A program made the translations under genes and the position numbers. A stretch of 64,000 bases of DNA from Pseudomonadota bacterium (GTDB taxonomy: Bacteria > Desulfobacterota > Desulfobacteria > Desulfobacterales > Desulfobacteraceae). Location: contig JAHJLN010000160.1 of NCBI GenBank assembly GCA_018821715.1, positions 19,923 to 83,922 on the forward strand, in the 5' to 3' direction. This document shows positions 52,297 to 63,819 of the stretch, piece after piece. The notes beneath the pieces are model-generated. The model was not told the origin of the DNA and made no database searches. It saw only the letters and a list, made by a program, of their open reading frames with translations. Each line of letters opens with the position of its first letter. Position 1 is the first letter of the stretch.

Positions 52297-53229
52297 TTAA
52301 ACAACCGGTCTTGGCAATACTCCGGCTCTTTTGGCAATTTCAGGGACCATGTGCTCCCATTCAATGGCCATCATGTGGACACCGGCCACACCTTCCATCT
52401 CCTTGAACTCTGCAACCTGTTCCAGGGCAAATTTGATGCCCTCTTCCGACTGGTCTTTTTTATCCACGCCTTTAAGGCGTTTGATCAGAGAATCGGGAAT
52501 ATCCATGCCCGGGACGAATTTTGACATGAAGTTTGCCATGCCGGCATTTTTCATGGGGGTAACCCCTGCCAGGATATAGCATTTTTCGTGGAGCCCCATG
52601 TCAACGACTTTTTTCATGAAGTCCCTGAATTTTTCCATGTTGAAAATGCATTGGGTCTGGATAAAATCAGCACCGGCTTCTATTTTGTTGGCAAGGCGAT
52701 AAACCCTGTATTCATAGGGGTCTGCAAATGGATTGGCTGCGGCGCCGATAAACATTTTAGGCGGCACATCAATATCTTCGTCATTGAGGAACTTTCCTTC
52801 ATCCCTCATTTTTTTGACCATGGCAATCAGCTGCATGGAATCAATATCATGAACATTTTTTGCATCCGGGTGATTCCCAAATGTCTGATGATCCCCTGAA
52901 AGACAGAGCATGTTTCGAATCCCCAGGGCATAGGCGCCCAGGATATCACTCATCATAGCCAGGCGGTTTCGATCCCTGCAGACCATCTGGAAATTGGGTT
53001 CAAGCCCTTCTTCGATCATCAGTACAGACCCTGCCATGGAAGACATTCTGACCACGGCTGTCTGGTTATCCGTCATATTTACGGCATCTACATTGCCTTT
53101 AAGGTGTTTTAATTTATCTTTCAAATGCGCTACATTGGCACCTTTTGGTGGCCCGCATTCTCCTGTAAATGCGAAGTGTCCGGCTTTTAGAACCTTTTCA
53201 AGGTTACTGCCTGATTTAAGCTCACTCAT
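52297..53229 (-). CDS. metF: Methylenetetrahydrofolate reductase, MetF type (copy 1)
   Basis: A 310-aa TIM-barrel flavoprotein for methylene-THF/methyl-THF interconversion. Features are TGECGPPKGANVAHL at the start (the catalytic-Glu region of MetF), VNMTDNQTAVVRMSS, NMLCLSGDHQTFGNHPDAKNVHDIDS, and GADFIQTQCIFNMEKFRDFM with YILAGVTPMKNAGMANFMSKFVPG. It is the last gene of the leftward operon, 22 bp after the MetV-like gene. In MetFV complexes of acetogens MetF lacks NADH binding and takes electrons via MetV and partners. That is likely here too. Confidence 0.92.
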   Translation of the reverse strand: MSELKSGSNLEKVLKAGHFAFTGECGPPKGANVAHLKDKLKHLKGNVDAVNMTDNQTAVVRMSSMAGSVLMIEEGLEPNFQMVCRDRNRLAMMSDILGAYALGIRNMLCLSGDHQTFGNHPDAKNVHDIDSMQLIAMVKKMRDEGKFLNDEDIDVPPKMFIGAAANPFADPYEYRVYRLANKIEAGADFIQTQCIFNMEKFRDFMKKVVDMGLHEKCYILAGVTPMKNAGMANFMSKFVPGMDIPDSLIKRLKGVDKKDQSEEGIKFALEQVAEFKEMEGVAGVHMMAIEWEHMVPEIAKRAGVLPRPVV

Positions 53230-53251: not shown

Positions 53252-53929
53252 TTATATATTTCCCTGAACCAATTCTTCCCTGATACTTCTTCTCGGTCCG
53301 CCGTCTCTGGCTGTTCTCCAGTTTTTAATCCCTTTTACACCAATAAGGTCTTCAAGCCTGCCGGCATCCATTTTCTTTCTCACAATAGAATCCCAGATGC
53401 ATTCTGTTTCTTTATTCACTTCACAGATACCGCCGGATGATCCGCCGCAGGGGCCGTTCATCAAGCTTTTTGCACACCTGGCAATGGGGCACAGCCCGCC
53501 GAAATTATGGATACCACAGGTACCGCAGCCTGCGCACCGTTCTTCCCATATGCCGTGCTGAGTGGCTCCACCAAAAAAGGTGGTATTAACCCCAGGATAA
53601 AATGTCTGGTCTTTATACATTTCAGATAGAAACTGGGGGCCGACACCGCAGGCCAGAGAAATCACTGCATCATAGTCACCCACTTTTTCACTGATTCCGG
53701 CCACATATTCTATGTCACACTGTCTTTCTAACACATCAATATCAATCTCAATGTCGTTTCCCTGTTTTTTCCTGGCAATTTTCATTGAGGATGCCAGTAT
53801 TTCAACTTCTTTTAACCCGCCGACATTGCAGACAGTAACGCACCCTTTGCATCCTGCGATGAGAATCTTTTTATTGTCTTCCACCATCGCTAAAATCTCC
53901 TGTAGAGACTTTCGATCTGCTACTATCAT
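53252..53929 (-). CDS. metV: MetV-like MTHFR C-terminal zinc/iron-sulfur protein
   Basis: A 225-aa Cys-rich protein of the MTHFR_C family (PF12225 type). Cysteines occur in ILIAGCKGCVTVCNVGG, SLACGVGPQFL, RCAGCGTCGIHNFGGLCPIARCAKSLMNGPCGG and GGICEVNKETECIW. In Moorella the homologue MetV binds MetF and carries Fe-S or zinc sites linking it to HdrABC-MvhD. The gene order here (mvhD-like, metV, metF) supports the same role: electron hand-over between the Hdr module and MetF. Confidence 0.87.
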   Translation of the reverse strand: MIVADRKSLQEILAMVEDNKKILIAGCKGCVTVCNVGGLKEVEILASSMKIARKKQGNDIEIDIDVLERQCDIEYVAGISEKVGDYDAVISLACGVGPQFLSEMYKDQTFYPGVNTTFFGGATQHGIWEERCAGCGTCGIHNFGGLCPIARCAKSLMNGPCGGSSGGICEVNKETECIWDSIVRKKMDAGRLEDLIGVKGIKNWRTARDGGPRRSIREELVQGNI

Positions 53930-54008: not shown

Positions 54009-54434
54009 CTATGCCGCAGTATTGCTTTTCACAGGTGTTGGTCCTAGGCCTCTTATCTGTTCCACCATTTCATTGGCAATCTCGGCAAACCGTGCACCCT
54101 GGGCTGAAGAAAGATTGTACATCTCCACCCGTTCAGGTTCAATCCCCAGTTCCGTCAGGGTTCTTTTCACGTATTCAACCTTTCTTCTGGCTTTAAGATT
54201 ACCTTCCAAATAGTGGCATTCGCCTTCAAGACATCCTGCCACATATACTCCGTCCGCACCATCCTCAATGGCATTTAAAAGATGGAGGATATCCACCCTG
54301 CCTGTGCACGGCACCTGAATAATTTTGACATCTGCAGGATAGGAGAGTCGCATGGAACCTGCCAGGTCCCCGGCTGCATACGCTCAGTACTGACAGCAAA
54401 AAGCGATTATCCTGGGTTCAAATTCTTGGGTCAT
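54009..54434 (-). CDS. mvhD: MvhD-like hydrogenase/Hdr iron-sulfur subunit, selenoprotein (in-frame TGA)
   Basis: 141 aa including a selenocysteine. The ORF track starts it at the internal Met 54353. The real frame begins at ATG 54434 with GGAGG seven bases upstream, and reads through a TGA at 54384-54386 (residue 17). This gives FCCQY-U-AYAAGDLAG, where MvhD homologues have Cys in the FxCxWC/SYAGADLAG motif. Downstream are VPCTGRVDILHLLNAIEDGADGVYVAGCLEGECHYLEGN, the conserved second half. MvhD passes electrons between HdrA and a partner dehydrogenase. Here it would connect the HdrA fusion to the MetFV module. A hairpin 13 nt after the TGA could be the SECIS. Confidence 0.88.
54354..54370 (-). 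promoter_or_regulatory. Putative bacterial SECIS hairpin of the mvhD-like gene
   Basis: Beginning 14 nt after the TGA, GGGACCT pairs with AGGTTCC (one G-U) around a GGC loop. Position and size fit the bacterial SECIS bound by SelB. Energy not computed. Confidence 0.5.
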
Positions 54435-54479: not shown

Positions 54480-57400
54480 TTACGCCTTTTCAAAAAGTGC
54501 ATCGGTTTTTGCCAGAATCTGCGGATCTGTAAAATGATTCAGTTTAATGGCCTTGCCCGGACACTCTGCCACACAGGCCCCGCAACCATGGCATTCCACG
54601 GCAGCAATCTGTGCATACCCATCCGCATGAATCGTGGGTATCCCATAGGGGCAGGTTCTCACGCAGGTCAGGCAGACCGCACATTTTTCACGGGTGACCT
54701 CTGCCACAACACCCCCCACCATCAATGAATCTCTTGAAAGAATTGTCATGGCGCGGGCAACAGCGGCACGGGCCTGGGCAATGCTTTCTTCAAGGGGTTT
54801 GGGATAATGGGCAAGACCTGCCACAAACAGGCCGTCAGATGCAAAATCAACCGGCCGCAGTTTTGCGTGGGCCTCTACAAGGAAGCCTTCAGCATTTGTC
54901 GGCACTTTGAACTTTTCAAACAGGTTCTTGTTCTCACCGGGAACCACACCGGATGCAAGAACTACCAGATCCGGGTTGATCTTTACCGGCATCTGGAGAA
55001 CATGATCAATGACCGTAAATTCCAGGTCACCGTTGCTATCTTTTCTGAGTTTCGGCATCTTTTCAAGGTCGTACCGGATAAACAGCACACCCCGTTCTCT
55101 TGCCTCTTTATAGAGATCTTCTCTGAACCCATAGGAGCGAATATCCCTGTAGACCACATAAACCCGTTTCCTTGGATCTTTCTTCTTAAGGGCTAACGCA
55201 CTCTTGAGACTGTGGGTACAGCAGACTTTGCTGCAATAGGGATTTTCATCGTTCCTTGATCCGACACATTGGACAAATACAACGGCCCTGGCCTTATCAA
55301 TCCTTGGATCATCTTCCCGCAACGCTGCATCCATATCCAGATGGGTCAGCACATTGGGGTCTTCACCATAGAGGTATTCATGGGGCTTGTACTCCATGCC
55401 GCCGGTTGCAAGAATGGCAGCGCCATGTTCAATGGAAACCTGGCTGCTGTCACTGTTTTTAGCAATCTGGGTCACAAAATTTCCCATGGATCCAGTTGTT
55501 GCCTTAATCTGGGAATCCAGATACAGCTGAATAGACTCATGGGCTTTGGTTTTTTCAATCAGGTCTGTCAGATACGCCTGAATCGGTTCTCCTTTCCAGG
55601 TGGCATTCAATTGCATTGCAATTCCCCCCAGAGTGCCTGTTTTTTCAACCAGATGAACGTTAATGCCCTGTCTGGCTGCGCCAAGAGCTGCTTCCATACC
55701 GGCCACACCACCGCCCACCACAAGGACAGACTTCTGGATATCCAGGCTGACCTGATGCAAGGGCTCTATTAACGCTGCCTTGGCGACAGCCATGCGAACC
55801 AGATCTTTGGCTTTCTGGGTTGCCTTTTCCGGCTCCTTCATATGGACCCAGGTATTCTGATCCCGGATATTTGCCATTTCAAAGAGATACTTGTTCAGGC
55901 CCGCATCCCGGATGGTTTCCTGGAACAACGGCTCATGGGTTCTCGGAGAACAGGCTGCCACAATCACTCTGTTGAGCTTGTGTTCCTGTATCAGCTCTTT
56001 CATGTTATCCTGGGAATCCTGTGAACAGGTAAACAGTTTATCCTCCACATGGACCACATAGGGTAAAGTGCTGGCATAATCCCTGACTGCCGGTACATCG
56101 GCAACACCGCCGATGTTGATACCGCAGTTACAGACCCAGACACCGATCCTTGGCTGCTGCCCTGAAAAATCACTTTCCGGCGGCAGTTCCCTGGTCCGTG
56201 TCATGCTCCATCTGTCATCTTTCATTGCCATGGTGGCGGTTGCTGCCGCAGCCGAGGCTTCCATGACCGATGAGGGGATATCCTTGGGTTCCTGGAAGGC
56301 ACCACAGACATAGACCCCTTTTTTATTGGTGGACACGGGCGACAGGTTATCCGTATGGGCAAACCCGTGGCTGTTGAGTTCTATGCCCATCTTGTCCGCA
56401 AGCGCCTGAGCGTCTTTGTTGGGCGCCAGACCAACGGAAAGGACAACCATATCAAAAATCTCTTCAACCATGCTCCCGGCTTCCGTGGAGTAAACAATTC
56501 TATATTTATCGCCAGGTTCAGGGAAAACAGAGTGGATTCTGGATCTGACGAACCGAACCCCGCCATCCTGAGCCCTGATATTGTATTTATCAAAATCTTT
56601 GCCATGGGTTCTCATGTCCATGAAAAAGATGGCTGCATCCAGGCCTTTGGCACTGTGTTCCTTTGCAATCACGGCCTGTTTGTTGGCATACATGCAGCAG
56701 ACACCGGAACAATAGGAATGATCCCCTTTGTTGATATCCCGTGAACCCACACATTGGAGCCAGGCGATCTTTTTGGGTTCCACATGATCCGACGGTCTGA
56801 CAAGGTGTCCGGCATAGGGACCGGATGCAGACAGGATTCTTTCAAATTCTACGCTGGTCATGATGTTGGGGCTGTGACCATAGCAGTAGGTGATCATCTG
56901 GGTGGGTTCAAACGGGGTGAACCCCGGTGCCATGATAACCGCACCCACATGAATGGTATGCTCTTTTGCCGTCATGGAATGATCAACCGCATTGGCAAGA
57001 CAGGCATCCACGCACTGCATGCATTCAGAACAATATCCGCAGTTCAGACATCTGGCCGCTTCTTTTTGACCTTCTTCCCTGCCATATCCCAGTTCCACTT
57101 CGTCAAAATTGCCTGCCCGTTTCTCAATGGCCAGCTCCGGCATCTTATACCGGTTCACTTTTGCCATGTCTGCTTCAACCGGACGGAATTCAGGGTTTTC
57201 AACAACAGGAATTGCTCTTCCCTCTTCCATATCCTTTCCTGTAAGATACCGGAAAATGGATTCAGCAGCTTCCATACCGGCTGCGATGGCAGCAATGGCA
57301 ACGCTGGGTCCTGTCTGAACATCACCGCCTGCAAATACGCCTTCCCTGTCTGTACAAAGGGTGACGGGATTGACTTCCGTGGTATCCCATTTGCTGATTT

Positions 57401-58910
57401 TCAGATCAGCAAGGTTTTCTATAGCAGAAAGATCCGGCCGTTGACCAATGGCAGGAATAAGCTGATCAATCTCAATGTCATACTCGCTGCCGGGAACAGG
57501 CACCGGGCGTCTTCGCCCTGATTTATCCGGTTCTCCCAGCTCCATCTTGATCACGCGAACGGCCTTGACCCTGCCGTTTTCTTCGATGAGTTTCTGTGGA
57601 GCGGCAAGATAGACAATCTTTGTTCCTTCATCTTCAGCAGCACAGATTTCCTCTTCCCAGGCCGGCATTTCCTTGCGGGTCCTGCGGTAAAGGATGGTAA
57701 CCTCCTGGGCGCCCAGTCGAACAGCAGCCCTTGCCACGTCAATGGCGACATTTCCGCCGCCGATAATCCCGACTTTGTTTCCAACCTGGGTTTTCCCCGT
57801 CAGATTGAGTTCTCTCAAGAAATCAACGCCCTGGCGGACCCCTTCAAGATCTTCTCCCGGGATGCCAAGTGCAATCCCTTTGTGGGCACCCAGTCCCAGG
57901 AAAACCGCATCAAACCCGTCAGCCAAGAGGCTGTCCACGGTGATATCTTTTCCAAGAGCTGTGTTCAGCTTTATTTCAACCCCAAGGTTGGTAACCACCT
58001 CGATGTCCTTATCAAGGACTTCCGGCGGCAGACGATGATCCGGAATACCGACCCTGAGCATCCCGCCTGCTTTAGGCAGCGCTTCAAATATGGTGGCATC
58101 CACCCCTTTTCTGGCCAGATGATACCCAGCCGAGAGACCTGCCGGTCCGGAACCGATGATGGCAACTTTTTTACCGATCTTTTCAGCACATTCAATTTCA
58201 ACCTCTCTGGGGTCAAAACTGTCTGCAGCAAGGCGTTTCAAATCCCTTATGGCCACCGGCTGATCCACCTGGCAGCGCCTGCAGGCATCCTCGCACTCAT
58301 GGGGGCAGACCCTGCCCAGAACTCCGGGCAACGGGAGCTGTTCCATGATAATTTCCAGGGACTCCTTATATTTGCCTTCCTTTACCATTTGAACATAGCC
58401 TTGCACATTCAGTCCTGCAGGGCAGGTCAGACGGCAGGGGGCCTTGTCCTTTTTCTCTATGGCAAAACCCGACGGCATTGCCTGGGGGTAAAGCTTAAAT
58501 GCAGCCTTTCTGTCACCCAGCTCTTCGTCAAACTGGTTGGGAAGCTCTACGGGACAGATTTTGGAACATTCTCCGCAGGCAGTACATTTTTCAAGATCAA
58601 TAAATCGGGGTTCCTGTCTTAATTTTACTGTAAAATCACCCTCTTCACCGGTGACTTCTTCAATCTGCGTCATGGTCATGAGCTCAATATTGAGATGACG
58701 ACCTGCTTCAACCAGTTTCGGGGAAATGATACACATTGAGCAGTCATTGGTGGGAAAGGTCTTGTCTAATTGCGCCATTGTTCCGCCAATGGCTGTATCT
58801 TTATCTACGAGGTATACCAGATACCCTGAATCCGCCAGATCCAGCGAAGCCTGAATACCTGCGATGCCGGCACCGACGACCATTACCGACCCTCTACCTT
58901 TTTCGGCCAT
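54480..58910 (-). CDS. hdrA: HdrA-(GltD/NfnB-like)-HdrA fusion flavoprotein
   Basis: A 1476-aa iron-sulfur flavoprotein. Residues 1-~125: HdrA FAD domain (VVGAGIAGIQAS, GGTMAQLDKTFPTNDC) with a 4Fe-4S site CTACGECSKICP. About 155-575: complete GltD/NfnB-type module with CPAGLNV, CPHECEDACRRC, FAD site IIGSGPAGLSAGYHL (~251) and NAD(P) site IIGGGNVAIDVARAA (~382). About 620-895: rest of the first HdrA (CLNCGYCSECMQCVDAC, CVGSRD, YCSGVCCMYANKQA). About 920-1476: second HdrA (VCNCGINIGGV, AACSPRTHEPLFQ, VVGGGVAGMEAAL, CVGSRND, YCSKVCCTHSLK) ending in two ferredoxin clusters from C1410. It should bifurcate or confurcate electrons between NAD(P)H, ferredoxin and the MetF side. Ribosome site AGGAGGG. 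Confidence 0.92.
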   Translation of the reverse strand: MAEKGRGSVMVVGAGIAGIQASLDLADSGYLVYLVDKDTAIGGTMAQLDKTFPTNDCSMCIISPKLVEAGRHLNIELMTMTQIEEVTGEEGDFTVKLRQEPRFIDLEKCTACGECSKICPVELPNQFDEELGDRKAAFKLYPQAMPSGFAIEKKDKAPCRLTCPAGLNVQGYVQMVKEGKYKESLEIIMEQLPLPGVLGRVCPHECEDACRRCQVDQPVAIRDLKRLAADSFDPREVEIECAEKIGKKVAIIGSGPAGLSAGYHLARKGVDATIFEALPKAGGMLRVGIPDHRLPPEVLDKDIEVVTNLGVEIKLNTALGKDITVDSLLADGFDAVFLGLGAHKGIALGIPGEDLEGVRQGVDFLRELNLTGKTQVGNKVGIIGGGNVAIDVARAAVRLGAQEVTILYRRTRKEMPAWEEEICAAEDEGTKIVYLAAPQKLIEENGRVKAVRVIKMELGEPDKSGRRRPVPVPGSEYDIEIDQLIPAIGQRPDLSAIENLADLKISKWDTTEVNPVTLCTDREGVFAGGDVQTGPSVAIAAIAAGMEAAESIFRYLTGKDMEEGRAIPVVENPEFRPVEADMAKVNRYKMPELAIEKRAGNFDEVELGYGREEGQKEAARCLNCGYCSECMQCVDACLANAVDHSMTAKEHTIHVGAVIMAPGFTPFEPTQMITYCYGHSPNIMTSVEFERILSASGPYAGHLVRPSDHVEPKKIAWLQCVGSRDINKGDHSYCSGVCCMYANKQAVIAKEHSAKGLDAAIFFMDMRTHGKDFDKYNIRAQDGGVRFVRSRIHSVFPEPGDKYRIVYSTEAGSMVEEIFDMVVLSVGLAPNKDAQALADKMGIELNSHGFAHTDNLSPVSTNKKGVYVCGAFQEPKDIPSSVMEASAAAATATMAMKDDRWSMTRTRELPPESDFSGQQPRIGVWVCNCGINIGGVADVPAVRDYASTLPYVVHVEDKLFTCSQDSQDNMKELIQEHKLNRVIVAACSPRTHEPLFQETIRDAGLNKYLFEMANIRDQNTWVHMKEPEKATQKAKDLVRMAVAKAALIEPLHQVSLDIQKSVLVVGGGVAGMEAALGAARQGINVHLVEKTGTLGGIAMQLNATWKGEPIQAYLTDLIEKTKAHESIQLYLDSQIKATTGSMGNFVTQIAKNSDSSQVSIEHGAAILATGGMEYKPHEYLYGEDPNVLTHLDMDAALREDDPRIDKARAVVFVQCVGSRNDENPYCSKVCCTHSLKSALALKKKDPRKRVYVVYRDIRSYGFREDLYKEARERGVLFIRYDLEKMPKLRKDSNGDLEFTVIDHVLQMPVKINPDLVVLASGVVPGENKNLFEKFKVPTNAEGFLVEAHAKLRPVDFASDGLFVAGLAHYPKPLEESIAQARAAVARAMTILSRDSLMVGGVVAEVTREKCAVCLTCVRTCPYGIPTIHADGYAQIAAVECHGCGACVAECPGKAIKLNHFTDPQILAKTDALFEKA

Positions 58911-58925
58911 TTGGATCCCTCCTTT

Positions 58926-60212
58926 TTATAGTCCCACTTCAGCCAGATCCGGCCCAAGATAGGTTCGTTCAGTTTCAGAAAGCATGCCCATGGCAAGACA
59001 GATAATCGTCCATAAATGGACAACATGCCAGCCGCCGCCAAAATGTTCGCCAATATCTTCAACCTGGCCGTGACAATTATGACAGGGTGCAATCACGTAG
59101 GTTGCACCGGTTGCCTTGAGCTGGTTGAATTTCGTCTGGCCATACGCTCTTCTTGCGTCGGGAAATCCGGCCTGCAAAGCACCGCCGCCGCCGCCACAGC
59201 AATAATTATTGCCCCTGTTGGGTACGGTATCAATAAAATTTTCTTCACCCACAACGGTTTTGATGACAAAGCGCAAGTCATCTACAATTTTATTGGACCC
59301 GCTTTTTCTTCCGATATTGCAGGGATCCTGCACTGTAAATTTGGCTTTGATATCTTTGTTCCAGTCAGAGTTGACCTTTAATTTACCCTCTTTTATCCAC
59401 TGGGCATACAACTCAATAATGGTGGTCAATTGAAACTTGTGAGGGATCTTAAATCTGCGCAATCCTTCCAGGATCGCAAAGTATGAGTGCCCTCACTCGG
59501 TATTGACGACAATAGGGCTTTTTAAATTATTGTCCACATGGTGGACAAACTCCTCTACAATATATTTCCATCCCTCAAGATCGGCCATGAACATGCAGTA
59601 ATTTTCACCGGCCCACATCACGGACGGATAGGTCCAGTCTGCACCGACGGTATGAAGAATTTTCCACAAAGGTCCCATTTCCTCGGGTTCTGTTACAGGT
59701 TCCCTGGAGTTCTGGTTCAGTACCATTGTGGCACCTACCCGATCTACTGAAACCTCTAAATCCTCAAACCCCGGCTGGTCTTCCCGGATTTCCTCGGCCA
59801 CATCCAGGACAGTGAATTCAAAATCATCCTTCTTAGCCCCCATTGCACTGCCGGTTCGAATATGCTGGTCACAGGAACCAAGGATTCCTTTCGGTCTTTT
59901 TTCCCTGGGAACACTTGCCCGCAGATTAAACACCAGTGCCGGGATATTAATTTTCATGGGACAGGCGGATACACAACGTGCGCACATACTGCACACCCAC
60001 TTCCAGTCTGACTTGCGTATTTCATCATCCATCCCTAAATTCAACATTCGTATGAGCTTTCTCGGATCCATGTCCATCAGCTCCGAAGCCGCACACCCTC
60101 CTGTGCAGGTCCCACATGTCAGACAAAGATCAAAGTTTGCATCAGGTACCTTTCCAAGAACCTCATCTTTAAATTCAATGTCAAGGGTATCAATCTTAAT
60201 TGCCTCTGCCAT
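58926..60212 (-). CDS. HdrC/HdrB-like iron-sulfur selenoprotein (in-frame TGA joins two ORFs)
   Basis: The ORF track shows two proteins (239 and 178 aa), but 58926-60212 is one 429-codon frame interrupted only by TGA at 59493-59495 (residue 240). Read as Sec it gives VVNTE-U-GHSYFAILEGLRRF, where Hdr/GlpC-type CCG domains have ECGH. The N-terminal part is HdrC-like, with two 4Fe-4S motifs: CLTCGTCTGGC (Cys 30, 33, 36, 40) and CSMCARCVSACP (74-84). The C-terminal part is an HdrB-type cluster domain: DPCNIGR, NYCCGGGGG, APCHNCHGQ. It should form the disulfide-reductase-like arm of the Hdr complex. A hairpin after the TGA could be the SECIS. No selA/selB/selC genes are in the window. Confidence 0.9.
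59458..59478 (-). promoter_or_regulatory. Putative bacterial SECIS hairpin of the HdrC/B-like gene
   Basis: Starting 15 nt after the TGA, TGCGATCC pairs with GGATTGCG (with two G-U/U-G pairs) around a TGGAA loop. Spacing and size match bacterial SECIS elements. Energy not computed. Confidence 0.55.
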
Positions 60213-60226
60213 TTCAAAGCTCTCCC

Positions 60227-61105
60227 TTATCTTAATTTGGCTGCGTTCAGATACTGCACCAGGTTATCAACACCTCCAATGGTAATGATATGAACCCCCT
60301 GGCAAATATCTTTCAGACTGTTAACAGTATCGGCAAAAAGCTCCATACTCGCTTTCTGCTTATTAGGTGCTTTCAAAAGCTTCTGGATAACCCACTCAGG
60401 TACAAGCCCGGATTTAAAATGACGGTTCAGAAATTTGCCCATCCCTGCGGTTCTCAAAATCATAACCTCAGCAATGACAGGGACTTTAAACGGCGCAACC
60501 TGCTTCATGAACTTTGCAAACTGATCAATATCAAAAATAGGCGTTGTTAGAAAATATCCTGCACCCACATTCATCATATCTTCCATTTCTTCCATGCCGC
60601 GCTTTGGCATGTTTTTTCCCCAGGGTGTTTCAATTCCGGAACCCAGTACGAACTCAATCTTGCTGTCAAGCTCTTTTCCTTCAATTGAAACCCCTTGTTT
60701 CAAATGATCCATAACCGATGCCAGTTTCCCTGAATCAACATGGAAGAACATTGATTCTTGAAGGGTATCTCCTGCAATCCTGTAATCTTCGGTAAATACC
60801 AGAAGATTTTCCACACCGGTCTCATGGGCAAGCGTCAGGTCCTTTTGCAGTTGGAAACGGTTTTTATCTCTTGTAGTGGTTTGATAAATGGCATTCAAAT
60901 TATTCTCGTTTAAAAGACCACATGTTTTGATGGTGTCACTTACCACTCCTTCAAGTTCTATTTCCGAAACAGATACACCGTCCACACGGCCTTTTACCCT
61001 GCCAAGGCTTTCAACAAGTCCCTCGGGTTCTTCATCTCCGAGAGGAACCTGCACTTCGGACGTTACAACAAATCTCTTTTTTTCCAAAGATTCTTTTAAT
61101 TTCAT
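60227..61105 (-). CDS. MetF-like methylenetetrahydrofolate reductase paralogue (copy 2)
   Basis: A 292-aa TIM-barrel protein related to MetF: SLEKKRFVVTSEVQVPLG at the start (catalytic-Glu region), VDGVSVSEIELEGVVSD, and LNAIYQTTTRDKNRFQLQKDL with the conserved T-T-R-D-K/R-N. Then ENLLVFTEDYRIAG replaces the usual LxLxGD, and GAGYFLTTPIFDIDQFAKFM and PVIAEVMILRTAGMGKFLNRHF follow. It differs enough from the metF at the operon's other end that the two are not a recent duplication. It lies 14 bp after the response-regulator gene and 14 bp before the selenoprotein gene. It may be a second catalytic or a structural subunit. Confidence 0.85.
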   Translation of the reverse strand: MKLKESLEKKRFVVTSEVQVPLGDEEPEGLVESLGRVKGRVDGVSVSEIELEGVVSDTIKTCGLLNENNLNAIYQTTTRDKNRFQLQKDLTLAHETGVENLLVFTEDYRIAGDTLQESMFFHVDSGKLASVMDHLKQGVSIEGKELDSKIEFVLGSGIETPWGKNMPKRGMEEMEDMMNVGAGYFLTTPIFDIDQFAKFMKQVAPFKVPVIAEVMILRTAGMGKFLNRHFKSGLVPEWVIQKLLKAPNKQKASMELFADTVNSLKDICQGVHIITIGGVDNLVQYLNAAKLR

Positions 61106-61119
61106 GATCTGCCTCCCTC

Positions 61120-61692
61120 CTATTTTAATCCCAATAATTTGGCCACTTCATCCTTGAGCTTGGACAGGGGCAACGGCTTTGAAAAACAGACATCCGCTCC
61201 ATTCTCTTTCATCTGGGCGAACTTATCATCATCCAGGTATGCGGATAATACGATAATTTTTATCTCTTTTGTTTTTTCATTTGCCTTGATTTTTTTACAG
61301 ACTTCATACCCCTTGATATCCGGCATCATAATATCAAGAATCAAAAGATCAGGATGAAAATGATTGACCTGGAGACCTGCTTCAAAACCGTCTGATGCTG
61401 AAATCACCTCATAGTCAAACTCATCTTCTTCCAAAGCCTGTACAATTGACTCAACAATGATCATATCATCATCTACAACAAGAATCTTTTTTCTGGCGCC
61501 CTCCTCTTTTTCTTCCGGAATGGGGATCCCCTGGCTTCTCATAAATGTCTCAAGATCAGACTTTTTTATCCTGCGATGTCCGCCAACGGTTCGATATGCT
61601 TTAATGTGTCCGGCTTCAACCCAGTTGATAATGGTTTTAGACGAAACATTGCAGTATTTGCTCGCGGTGAATACAGTCAACGTGTCTTCCAT
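61120..61692 (-). CDS. Response regulator with N-terminal MerR/excisionase-type HTH and C-terminal REC
   Basis: A 190-aa protein with reversed domain order. Residues ~6-55 are a helix-turn-helix of the MerR/BldC/excisionase kind (FTASKYCNVSSKTIINWVEAGHIKAYRTVGGHRRIKKSDLETFM). Residues ~68-190 are a receiver domain (ILVVDDDMIIVESI, phospho-acceptor Asp in PDLLILDIMMPDIKGYEV, VLSAY, CFSKPLPLSKL). It is the first gene of the hdr-met operon, so it probably controls that operon and itself. The PAS kinase 300 bp upstream is the likely partner. Tandem AATAAC repeats overlap its putative promoter. Confidence 0.9.
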   Translation of the reverse strand: MEDTLTVFTASKYCNVSSKTIINWVEAGHIKAYRTVGGHRRIKKSDLETFMRSQGIPIPEEKEEGARKKILVVDDDMIIVESIVQALEEDEFDYEVISASDGFEAGLQVNHFHPDLLILDIMMPDIKGYEVCKKIKANEKTKEIKIIVLSAYLDDDKFAQMKENGADVCFSKPLPLSKLKDEVAKLLGLK

Positions 61693-61731
61693 AACACCCT
61701 CCTTGTTAATATTTAGGTGACTTTCTATTTT

Positions 61732-61749
61732 TAGTTATTATAGTTATTT
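61732..61749. promoter_or_regulatory. Tandem 9-bp repeats over the putative -10 region of the hdr-met operon
   Basis: TAGTTATTA TAGTTATTT are two head-to-tail 9-mers (8 of 9 identical). On the minus strand they contain TATAAT (61742-61737), and a perfect TTGACA lies at 61769-61764 with a long 21-bp spacer. This would suit control by a small HTH regulator such as the operon's first gene product. Inference. Confidence 0.5.
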
Positions 61750-61787
61750 CATAAAATATCTTTTGTCAAGCAAATAATCATTCCTAT

Positions 61788-61805
61788 AATAACAGTAATA
61801 ACAAT
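61788..61805. promoter_or_regulatory. Second pair of tandem 9-bp repeats in opposite orientation
   Basis: AATAACAGT AATAACAAT repeats the AATAAC word of the first pair, inverted, 38 bp away. It begins inside the TATAAT (61785-61790) of a plus-strand TTGTCA-16-TATAAT promoter-like sequence. Confidence 0.45.
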
Positions 61806-61909
61806 AATTTCTATTCGAGGCAATTCAACGAAACTCTACGAGGTAAAGGACTTTCAGCGAATTCCAGGTGTTATCTGACAATTTGGACGGAATTATTTTT
61901 TATGTTTTT

Positions 61910-61951
61910 TTTACCCCCTGATACTTTTTTGAAAAAATATCAGGGGGTAAA
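61910..61951. terminator. Hairpin downstream of the PAS histidine kinase gene
   Basis: TTTACCCCCTGATA (61910-61923) and TATCAGGGGGTAAA (61938-61951) are exact complements around a 14-nt T6/A6 centre, 44 bp past the kinase stop on the minus strand. No U-run follows the stem in either direction, so efficiency is uncertain. The rest of this 303-bp gap holds the repeats and promoters listed above. Confidence 0.6.
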
Positions 61952-61995
61952 GGAAGATTTCAGATCTTACGGCAGCTATTTTTTCCTTTTACACT

Positions 61996-63819
61996 CTACT
62001 TACCTGCAATGGGAAGCGTGATGGTAAACTTTGTCCATTGTCCCTCTTCAGATTCAACTGTGATATCCCCATCATGGTCCTTGATAAACCCATAGCAGAC
62101 GGAAAGTCCCAGGCCAACACCTTGAACGCTTTCCGTCTTGGTCGTAAAGAATGAATCAAAAATCTTTTTTATATGAACAGGTTTTATACCCGTCCCTGTA
62201 TCCTTGATGATGATATAAAGCTTTTCAGAACTGACCTTAGTGGATATTTGAAGTTCACCGCCATCGGGCATGGCATACATGGCATTGGAAAACATATTGA
62301 TAAATACCTGGCGCAATTGATCCTTGGATGCAAAAACAGTTCCCGGATTTTCAGCAAGATCAAGGATTACCTTTATGCTGTTTTCCCTTAGCCGTTTTTC
62401 ATACAGCAGCAGCAGCTCATCAATAACCACGTTAATGTCTATCTCAACACGCTTGTCCTGATCCGGTCTTGAAAAGGACAGCATTTTCTTGAGCATGTCT
62501 GCCAGCCGCTCAATCTCTGACAATGACATATCTAAAAGCCGTCGTCTCTTGTTTTCAGGTGAAATTTCGGTTTTCATCAATTCAAGGGTGTTCATGATAC
62601 CAAACAACGGATTATTCAACTCGTGGGCAATCTGGGATGTGAGTCTTCCCATGGCAGCCAGTTTCTCTGACTGGAGCAGATGTTGTCTTGCTGCGCCCAA
62701 TTCCCTTTCTGTCTGGAGCCGTTCTTTTAGATCGACAAACAACCCGACAGATGCCACCTCTTTGCCTTTATCATCATAAATAAGGCTGGTAGACAAATTC
62801 CCTTCCACCAGTTCCCCATTGTCCTTTTTAAAATTCAATGGATAAGAATTAAGCTTGCCCTTGCCCCCGAACTTTTCATCTCTCATCATTTCCATGACCT
62901 TTTTGGCCACTTTATTGGAAAAAATCTGCTGGATGGTCATTTTTCCGACCACCTCGGCAGATTTTACCCCGAAGATATTTTCAGCACCCTGGTTCCACAG
63001 TCGGATAACTCCGTTCATATCCATTGCCATAATGGCATTGGGGGAACATGAAATGATCTTATCCAAAAAATCATGGGCTTCTTTTATCTCGATTTCATGT
63101 TTCTTTCTCCGGGTCTGGTCCACAACGATCCCTTCATATCCCAGGATGTCTCCTTTGGTGTCATACCTGACATTACTGGTTAAAAGAAGATGCAGTATGT
63201 GGCCGTCCCGTTGCCGCCATTTCACCTCGTAATCGACGACCTGCCCTTTTTTTTCTATAATTTGTGTATATTTTCGCCTGTCTAAAGGATTTAAATACAC
63301 ATCCCTTGCAAGATCAAGGGAAAGGAACTCTTCTTTATTCTTATATCCGAGCATTTTCAACAAGGTGGGGTTGACATCTAAAAACCGCCCCTCCTTACTG
63401 CTGATAAACACCCCGCACCCTACATGTGTAAAAAGCCGTTGATAGCTTGCCTTGGAGGATTTGAGCCTTTCCTCCTGCCGCACATTGTGAGTGATGTCCC
63501 GGTATATGGAGAGCTTGGATTTTGTACCGTCCTGGTTGGTTACCGGCAGTTCTGACAGGGAAAAAATTTTATCCACTGATTCGATATAGACCTGACTGTG
63601 ATGGGTTTCATTTTTATTAAAAATTTCTTTATAATTGCACCAGTCGCATGGTTTTTCCGATCCGATCAATACGCTGTGGCATTTCTTGCCAACCCCTTCA
63701 CCAAACAACACTTTCATGAATTTATTCATGTATTCAACCGTATAATTATCATTTACAATATAAATACCATCTTCAAAAGCATCCAGTGCATCCAAGAGCT
63801 TCGGGGTATGATCGGTCAT
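61996..63819 (-). CDS. Soluble PAS-PAS-PAS sensor histidine kinase
   Basis: A 607-aa cytoplasmic kinase without membrane segments. PAS 1 (about 8-115) carries a Cys cluster (KKCHSVLIGSEKPCDWCN) often seen in deltaproteobacterial PAS domains that may bind a metal or respond to redox. PAS 2 (about 128-240) and PAS 3 (about 250-375) follow. The HisKA phospho-acceptor is in SQIAHELNNPLFGIMN. The HATPase_c domain has N-box QVFINMFSNAMYAMP, DTGTGIKPVHIKKIFDSFFTTK and GVGLGLSVCYGFIKDHDG. The lack of a membrane anchor suggests it senses an internal redox or metabolic signal. It lies upstream of and parallel to the HTH-REC regulator, its probable partner. Confidence 0.9.
   Translation of the reverse strand: MTDHTPKLLDALDAFEDGIYIVNDNYTVEYMNKFMKVLFGEGVGKKCHSVLIGSEKPCDWCNYKEIFNKNETHHSQVYIESVDKIFSLSELPVTNQDGTKSKLSIYRDITHNVRQEERLKSSKASYQRLFTHVGCGVFISSKEGRFLDVNPTLLKMLGYKNKEEFLSLDLARDVYLNPLDRRKYTQIIEKKGQVVDYEVKWRQRDGHILHLLLTSNVRYDTKGDILGYEGIVVDQTRRKKHEIEIKEAHDFLDKIISCSPNAIMAMDMNGVIRLWNQGAENIFGVKSAEVVGKMTIQQIFSNKVAKKVMEMMRDEKFGGKGKLNSYPLNFKKDNGELVEGNLSTSLIYDDKGKEVASVGLFVDLKERLQTERELGAARQHLLQSEKLAAMGRLTSQIAHELNNPLFGIMNTLELMKTEISPENKRRRLLDMSLSEIERLADMLKKMLSFSRPDQDKRVEIDINVVIDELLLLYEKRLRENSIKVILDLAENPGTVFASKDQLRQVFINMFSNAMYAMPDGGELQISTKVSSEKLYIIIKDTGTGIKPVHIKKIFDSFFTTKTESVQGVGLGLSVCYGFIKDHDGDITVESEEGQWTKFTITLPIAGK

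What the first reader, a model, noticed from the sequence alone, without database searches (positions are those of the whole stretch)
54480..58910. HdrA-NfnB/GltD-HdrA giant fusion
Seen: a GltD/NfnB-type module with its own FAD and NAD(P) Rossmann motifs is inserted inside a first HdrA unit, and a second full HdrA with a terminal diferredoxin region follows. Known: HdrA contains a bifurcating FAD; NfnB bifurcates NADPH electrons. Inference: one polypeptide may hold three FADs and at least six Fe-S clusters, connecting NAD(P)H, ferredoxin and a low-potential partner without a separate hydrogenase or FdhAB. This architecture could define a distinct class of electron-bifurcating complex.
Basis: partly seen in the sequence, partly recalled or inferred. 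Interest (0 to 1): 0.85.

Follow-up and report, generated by a model that had tools for sequence, protein, structure and literature searches.

The report
Known HdrA-GltD-HdrA fusion (HdrL)
The giant protein is real and well built, but it is a known and widespread electron-transfer subunit (called HdrL, also Moorella's HdrA), here sitting in a selenium-using enzyme cluster that most likely interconverts methylene- and methyl-tetrahydrofolate using NAD(P)H and a second, low-potential electron carrier.

Summary
In detail: 54480-58910 (-) is one intact 1476-aa ORF. A GltD/NfnB-like module (about residues 154-620) lies inside the inserted ferredoxin region of a first HdrA unit; a second HdrA unit follows. 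A structure model (residues 1-908, pLDDT 88) shows HdrA closing around an NfnB-like fold. The claim of a "distinct class" fails: this is HdrL, described in Desulfobacterium autotrophicum in 2009, with the architecture of Moorella HdrA in the MetVF-HdrCBA-MvhD methylene-THF reductase. It occurs in 34/39 family genomes and up to 84/197 of the phylum. The window carries that same cluster: RR, MetF2, HdrCB, HdrL, MvhD, MetV, MetF. New details: (1) bifurcation residues E690/K744 are invariant in unit 1 (92/92) but mostly lost in unit 2; (2) the GltD module has Lys225 where NfnB has its cluster-ligating Glu, as in non-bifurcating StnC, so it is probably only an NAD(P)H entry point; (3) the window copy has the YRR motif of NADPH enzymes, while its paralogue and Moorella-type proteins have CLE (NADH-type); (4) HdrCB and MvhD are both selenoproteins. 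Verdict: new member of a known kind.

The parts
54480..58910 (-). HdrL: HdrA-GltD-HdrA fusion, 1476 aa
58452..58910 (-). HdrA unit 1, first part (residues 1-153): FAD Rossmann motif GAGIAG, NDCSMC (C57/C60; C60 is a Sec position in paralogues), first ferredoxin-domain cluster motif C109-C119
57051..58451 (-). GltD/NfnB/StnC-like module (residues 154-620): Fer4_20, FAD motif GSGPAG, NAD(P) motif GGGNVA followed by YRR (408-410), Lys225 at the position of the NfnB cluster Glu
56211..57050 (-). HdrA unit 1, second part (residues 621-900): C621/C624 (GltD clusters), C627-C637 (ferredoxin cluster 2), E690 and K744 bifurcation residues, C720/734/738/739 cluster
54483..56165 (-). HdrA unit 2 (residues 916-1476): N-terminal cluster domain, FAD domain with D1194/K1236 in place of E/K, no inserted ferredoxin domain, C-terminal two-cluster ferredoxin
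54009..54434 (-). MvhD/FlpD, real start at the ATG at 54434; in-frame TGA at 54384-54386 read as selenocysteine (FCCQY-U-AYAAGDLAG). The plain ORF 54009-54353 is a truncation.
58926..60212 (-). HdrC-HdrB fusion (HdrD-like, 428 aa) with Sec at codon 240 (TGA 59493-59495, NTE-U-GH)
59438..59495 (-). SECIS-like hairpin following the HdrCB UGA (MFE -21 kcal/mol, z -3.66), stem conserved in almost all relatives that carry TGA
53252..53929 (-). MetV (Fe-S subunit of MetVF; DUF5981)
52297..53229 (-). MetF, methylene-tetrahydrofolate reductase
60227..61105 (-). MetF2: second, divergent MTHFR-family protein (22% identical to MetF); keeps the conserved Glu, Arg and Asp but has Thr for the conserved Gln
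61120..61692 (-). response regulator (MerR-type HTH plus REC), conserved upstream of MetF2
61996..63819 (-). PAS histidine kinase, conserved neighbour in some relatives

Best explanation
The protein is the central flavoprotein (HdrL) of a type IV (Moorella-type) methylene-THF reductase made of HdrCB, HdrL, MvhD, MetV and MetF. Most likely path: the GltD module exchanges hydride with NAD(P)H at its FAD (NADPH preferred, from the YRR motif) and passes single electrons over its two [4Fe4S] clusters and the inserted ferredoxin domain to the FAD of HdrA unit 1, which carries the invariant Glu/Lys pair and is the bifurcating (or confurcating) flavin. One branch runs to a low-potential partner (ferredoxin, or a carrier docking through MvhD). 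The other runs through HdrA unit 2 and HdrCB to MetV and the MetF flavin, where methylene-THF and methyl-THF interconvert. In a sulfate reducer with an acetyl-CoA synthase the net direction is probably oxidative during growth on organic acids: methyl-THF plus reduced ferredoxin confurcate to NAD(P)H. Shown here: domain order, predicted fold, motifs, gene order, homology to the characterised enzyme. Inferred: electron path, NADPH preference, direction, bifurcation itself.
For: Same architecture, length class and gene order (HdrC-type upstream, then HdrA-MvhD-MetV-MetF) as Firmicute proteins L159-L161, whose ORF length (1487 aa) and E696/K750/E1204/K1246 numbering equal those published for Moorella HdrA (PMC9430772). 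Moorella HdrA is the site of NADH oxidation and MetF of methylene-THF reduction (PMC8760232). 70 of 98 HdrL loci with enough flank are directly followed by MvhD and MetV. E690/K744 invariant in 92/92; in unit 2 Glu is replaced in 84 of 92 and the E+K pair survives in 4. Lys/His225 instead of Glu against StnC/NfnB. YRR as in the NADPH enzymes NfnB and StnC against CLE in Moorella-type L159-L161. AcsB/CdhC and DsrK in the same genome.
Against: Bifurcation has not been demonstrated even for Moorella: the complex did not oxidise NADH with methylene-THF, and the second acceptor is unknown. In S. ovata no co-reduction of ferredoxin or NAD(P) was seen. Some HdrL clusters lack MetVF next door (L066 and L069 have RR-MetF2-HdrCB-HdrL only), so HdrL may also serve other partners. 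The YRR/CLE rule is inferred from motif, not assayed. The MetF2 protein is unexplained.
Confidence: 0.62

Rival explanations
1. Non-bifurcating conduit: the fusion simply moves electrons from NAD(P)H (or, through MvhD, from a membrane or quinone-linked donor) to MetVF, without coupling to ferredoxin.
For: S. ovata complex: membrane-linked electron transport to methylene-THF and no detectable ferredoxin or NAD(P) co-reduction (PMC9430772); no bifurcation shown for Moorella. Unit 2 has mostly lost its Glu.
Against: E690/K744 of unit 1 are invariant over phyla (92/92), which is hard to explain for a plain conduit; in the oxidative direction NAD(P)+ reduction by methyl-THF (about -200 mV, PMC9430772) would be uphill without a second donor.
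Confidence: 0.25
2. One reading: the GltD module bifurcates on its own like NfnB, and HdrA adds further flavin chemistry in a distinct class of enzyme.
For: Fold and sequence are close to NfnB; the Arg corresponding to NfnB R201 is invariant (R293).
Against: The Glu ligand of the proximal cluster is Lys or His in all of about 110 homologues; the same change goes with a non-bifurcating FAD in StnC, which also keeps the Arg; no NfnA partner in the cluster; architecture already published.
Confidence: 0.06
3. HdrL here serves sulfur or formate metabolism (as proposed for the HdrL1-DsrABC cluster of D. autotrophicum), and the MetVF neighbours are incidental.
For: D. autotrophicum HdrL1 lies next to dsrABC; 28 of 98 loci lack MvhD+MetV directly downstream.
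Against: In this clade (orthologues 69-87% identical) the order RR-MetF2-HdrCB-HdrL-MvhD-MetV-MetF is kept in nearly all loci with enough flank.
Confidence: 0.07

Closest known systems
HdrL1-HdrL3 of Desulfobacterium autotrophicum HRM2 (PMC2702500, 2009)
   Same: HdrA/glutamate-synthase fusion, NADH-binding site predicted, followed by mvhD, selenocysteine in some copies
   Different: Contexts described there include dsrABC and fdhAB; I could not align to those proteins directly. The window copy has Cys60 and not Sec in HdrA unit 1, and sits with MetF2, HdrCB and MetVF.
HdrA of the MetVF-HdrCBA-MvhD methylene-THF reductase of Moorella thermoacetica (type IV MTHFR; PMC9430772, PMC8760232)
   Same: Identical domain order, near-identical length (1476 against 1487 aa), E/K in unit 1, no inserted ferredoxin domain in the second unit, same downstream order MvhD-MetV-MetF
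   Different: About 47% identity; NAD(P) motif YRR and not CLE; Asp instead of Glu in unit 2; HdrC and HdrB fused and Sec-containing; MvhD Sec-containing; extra MetF2 and two-component regulator genes
StnC of the StnABC transhydrogenase (8oh5) and NfnA of NfnABC (9bov, 9n5u)
   Same: Closest solved relatives of the GltD module (40-45% identity), permuted order with the 'ERxxNFxEV..RCLxCG' segment after the Rossmann domains, Lys at the cluster position, YRR NADPH motif
   Different: Fused to NuoG-like domains and not to HdrA; coupled to a NuoF-like FMN bifurcation module
HdrA of HdrABC-MvhAGD (5odc, 8rvu)
   Same: Both HdrA units are homologous; Glu356/Lys409 conserved in unit 1
   Different: Single HdrA unit, no GltD insert, hydrogen as donor, heterodisulfide as acceptor

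Membership tests
HdrL / GltD-containing HdrA | GltD-like FAD/NAD(P) module inserted in a first HdrA unit, second HdrA unit behind it | tested here: met
HdrL / GltD-containing HdrA | MvhD encoded directly downstream | tested here: met
   92 of 98 loci with flank show MvhD downstream
Type IV (Hdr-type) methylene-THF reductase | metV and metF in one cluster with hdrC, hdrB, hdrA and mvhD | tested here: met
   HdrC and HdrB are fused
Type IV (Hdr-type) methylene-THF reductase | HdrA oxidises NADH and MetF reduces methylene-THF in a physical complex | not testable with these tools
   shown for Moorella in the literature; motif suggests NADPH here
Bifurcating HdrA | Glu and Lys at positions 356/409 (M. 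thermolithotrophicus numbering) | tested here: met
   E690/K744 in unit 1; unit 2 has D1194/K1236, not met there
Bifurcating HdrA | coupled reduction of ferredoxin | not testable with these tools
   needs biochemistry
Bifurcating NfnB | Glu ligand at the FAD-proximal [4Fe4S] cluster | tested here: not met
   Lys225; K or H in all of about 110 homologues
Bifurcating NfnB | NfnA partner subunit | tested here: not met
   none among the cluster's neighbours
Bacterial selenoprotein (HdrCB) | in-frame UGA at a Cys position of homologues, frame conserved beyond it, SECIS hairpin, SelB in the genome | tested here: met
Bacterial selenoprotein (MvhD) | in-frame UGA at a Cys position of homologues, SECIS hairpin | tested here: inconclusive
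   TGA/Cys alternation over 107 loci is clear, but its hairpin was not significant against shuffles

The most novel reading that the evidence does not exclude
The cluster is an NADPH-dependent, selenium-enhanced variant of the type IV methylene-THF reductase with a second MTHFR-family subunit (MetF2) that no longer binds folate in the usual way. Desulfobacteraceae would then carry a pair of isoenzymes, one NADPH-type (YRR) and one NADH-type (CLE), that set the direction of the Wood-Ljungdahl methyl branch.
Probability: 0.35. Interest if true: 0.5.

Novelty: new member of a known kind. Interest (0 to 1): 0.32.

Why it matters
The second acceptor and the coupling mechanism of type IV methylene-THF reductases are unsolved. 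Alignment of about 110 fusions gives sharp, testable predictions: HdrA unit 1 is the bifurcation site, the GltD module is only the nucleotide port, and a YRR/CLE switch separates NADPH- from NADH-linked versions. It also flags that automatic annotation breaks or truncates two subunits (HdrCB, MvhD) because of selenocysteine codons.

Tried and rejected
Considered a chimeric assembly or frameshift artefact: rejected, since 84-87% identical full-length orthologues lie in independent genomes. Considered the HdrCB TGA as a real stop separating HdrC from HdrB: rejected (TGA in 24 relatives down to 54% identity, Cys in others, conserved frame and hairpin). Rfam gave no SECIS hit and only sub-threshold leader-like hits. 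Considered that the GltD module bifurcates like NfnB: disfavoured. Mock et al. 2014 (Moorella enzyme) is not held and Appel et al. 2021 was not read; both are cited only through other papers. One translation with wrong coordinates failed, as did one search with a wrong handle.
Full report
The observation. The minus strand of 54480-58910 is one uninterrupted ORF of 1476 aa starting at ATG 58910, 15 bases behind the upstream gene. Family searches place HdrA-type sequence at residues 1-153, 627-899 and 916-1476, and a PRK12771/GltD/NfnB-type module at 152-656 with Fer4_20 and Pyr_redox_2. The insert sits between the two cluster motifs of HdrA's own inserted ferredoxin domain: C109-C119 before it and C627-C637 after it. 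The segment 585-624, whose counterpart is N-terminal in NfnB, follows the Rossmann domains here, as in StnC and NfnABC, so the module is permuted relative to NfnB. An AlphaFold model of residues 1-908 from 44 homologues is confident (pLDDT 88.1, pTM 0.83). Foldseek finds both HdrA (897 alignment columns, TMt 0.94) and NfnB (TMt about 0.8) in it.

Cofactors. 35 ligand-type cysteines are conserved in at least 98% of 92 homologues; with Lys225 they make 36 ligands, i.e. nine [4Fe4S] clusters by my count: two ferredoxin-type in unit 1, two in GltD, one in the unit 1 flavin domain, and four in unit 2. The published count for Moorella is eight. Unit 2 lacks the inserted ferredoxin domain, and unit 1 lacks the N-terminal cluster domain and C-terminal ferredoxin, so the two units are complementary rather than two full HdrAs.

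Neighbours. All cluster genes from 63819 down to 52297 lie on the same strand: histidine kinase, response regulator, MetF2, HdrCB, HdrL, MvhD, MetV, MetF. The order from the response regulator to MetF recurs in Desulfobacula, Desulfamplus, Desulfocicer and other Desulfobacteraceae. Across 98 HdrL loci with enough flank, 70 are followed by MvhD and MetV. The genome also has an acetyl-CoA synthase, DsrK and SelB, so it is very likely a Wood-Ljungdahl sulfate reducer with selenocysteine machinery. A second HdrL (50% identical, contig C138) carries Sec at the position of C60 and is also followed by MvhD-MetV-MetF.

Selenoproteins. The apparent stop at 59493-59495 splits HdrC from HdrB only in a standard translation. 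The codon is TGA in 24 relatives down to 54% identity and in two more distant homologues, the frame is conserved after it, and paralogues have TGC; one search finds the TGA site in 39 loci. The hairpin directly behind it folds at -21 kcal/mol (z -3.66). Its stem is kept in almost all the TGA genes, with paired changes (CAATCC/GGATTG, CAGTCC/GGACTG), and is absent in the Cys paralogues. MvhD starts at 54434 and not 54353 and has TGA at 54384-54386; in the loci held here this site is TGA 49 times and Cys 58 times. Its hairpin is not significant against shuffles. Both protein families were already known to include selenoproteins (PMC2702500).

How it works. The pair E356/K409 of methanogen HdrA marks bifurcating flavins (PMC9430772 citing Appel 2021). 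Here it is E690/K744 in unit 1, invariant in 92 of 92 fusions. In unit 2 the Glu is Asp in the window and Asp, Ala, Gly or Ser in most others; E+K survives in 4 of 92, and in most of a separate Firmicute set. So unit 1 is the likely bifurcation site. NfnB's proximal cluster has a Glu ligand; StnC has Lys170 there and its FAD does not bifurcate (PMC10482914). By the PDB alignment the residue is Lys225 here, Lys or His in all of about 110 sequences and never Glu. So the GltD module most likely only exchanges electrons with NAD(P)H. Its nucleotide motif is YRR, as in the NADPH-using NfnB and StnC; the paralogue and the Moorella-type proteins have CLE, and Moorella HdrA oxidises NADH. The switch occurred several times on the tree. 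This supports, but does not prove, an NADPH-linked enzyme here.

Comparison. L159-L161 are unnamed Firmicute genomes that I identify as Moorella-type from the ORF length and the four published residue numbers, not from a name. The architecture, the gene neighbours and the proposed reaction are all in print for Moorella, related clusters in Chloroflexi, and the fusion itself for Db. autotrophicum. What differs here is detail: HdrCB fusion with Sec, Sec-MvhD, the YRR motif, and MetF2. MetF2-like genes also stand directly upstream of many Sec-type HdrLs; they keep the conserved Glu and Arg but have lost the conserved Gln almost throughout. Their role is unknown.

Limits. I found no assay of any Desulfobacterota HdrL. 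Even for Moorella the second acceptor is unknown and coupling was not shown. The electron path and direction are inference. The phylum-wide count (84 of 197) includes some partial matches (HdrA-only or contig-end hits), so it is an upper bound for intact fusions; the family count (34 of 39) is mostly full-length. My eight-way labels misassign two rows (L048, L062) as Sec because of an upstream TGA; no conclusion rests on them. The set of about 110 aligned fusions holds one near-duplicate (L116 and L145 are the same genome).

Noticed in passing
58926-60212 (-), TGA 59493-59495: HdrC-HdrB fusion is a selenoprotein with a conserved SECIS-like hairpin; standard ORF calling splits it in two.
   Followed up: yes
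54009-54434 (-), TGA 54384-54386: MvhD is very likely also Sec-containing; the plain ORF (54353 start) loses 27 N-terminal residues.
   Followed up: yes
60227-61105 (-): MetF2, a second divergent MTHFR-family gene that accompanies HdrL clusters in Desulfobacterota; conserved Gln replaced by Thr. Function unknown.
   Followed up: partly
L013:2713-9236 (own genome contig C138): Second HdrL with Sec66 (position of C60) and NADH-type CLE motif, followed by its own MvhD, MetV and MetF: a paralogous enzyme set.
   Followed up: yes
L066 and L069, downstream of HdrL: RR-MetF2-HdrCB-HdrL cluster without MvhD or MetVF within 10 kb downstream, so the MetF2-HdrCB-HdrL core can stand apart from MetVF.
   Followed up: partly
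own genome C183:12426-13424 and C18:3002-3997: Two more HdrD/DsrK-like genes with a single in-frame TGA, probably further selenoproteins.
   Followed up: no
61120-63819 (-): Two-component pair (PAS histidine kinase; response regulator with MerR-type HTH ahead of REC) conserved upstream, a likely regulator of the cluster.
   Followed up: no
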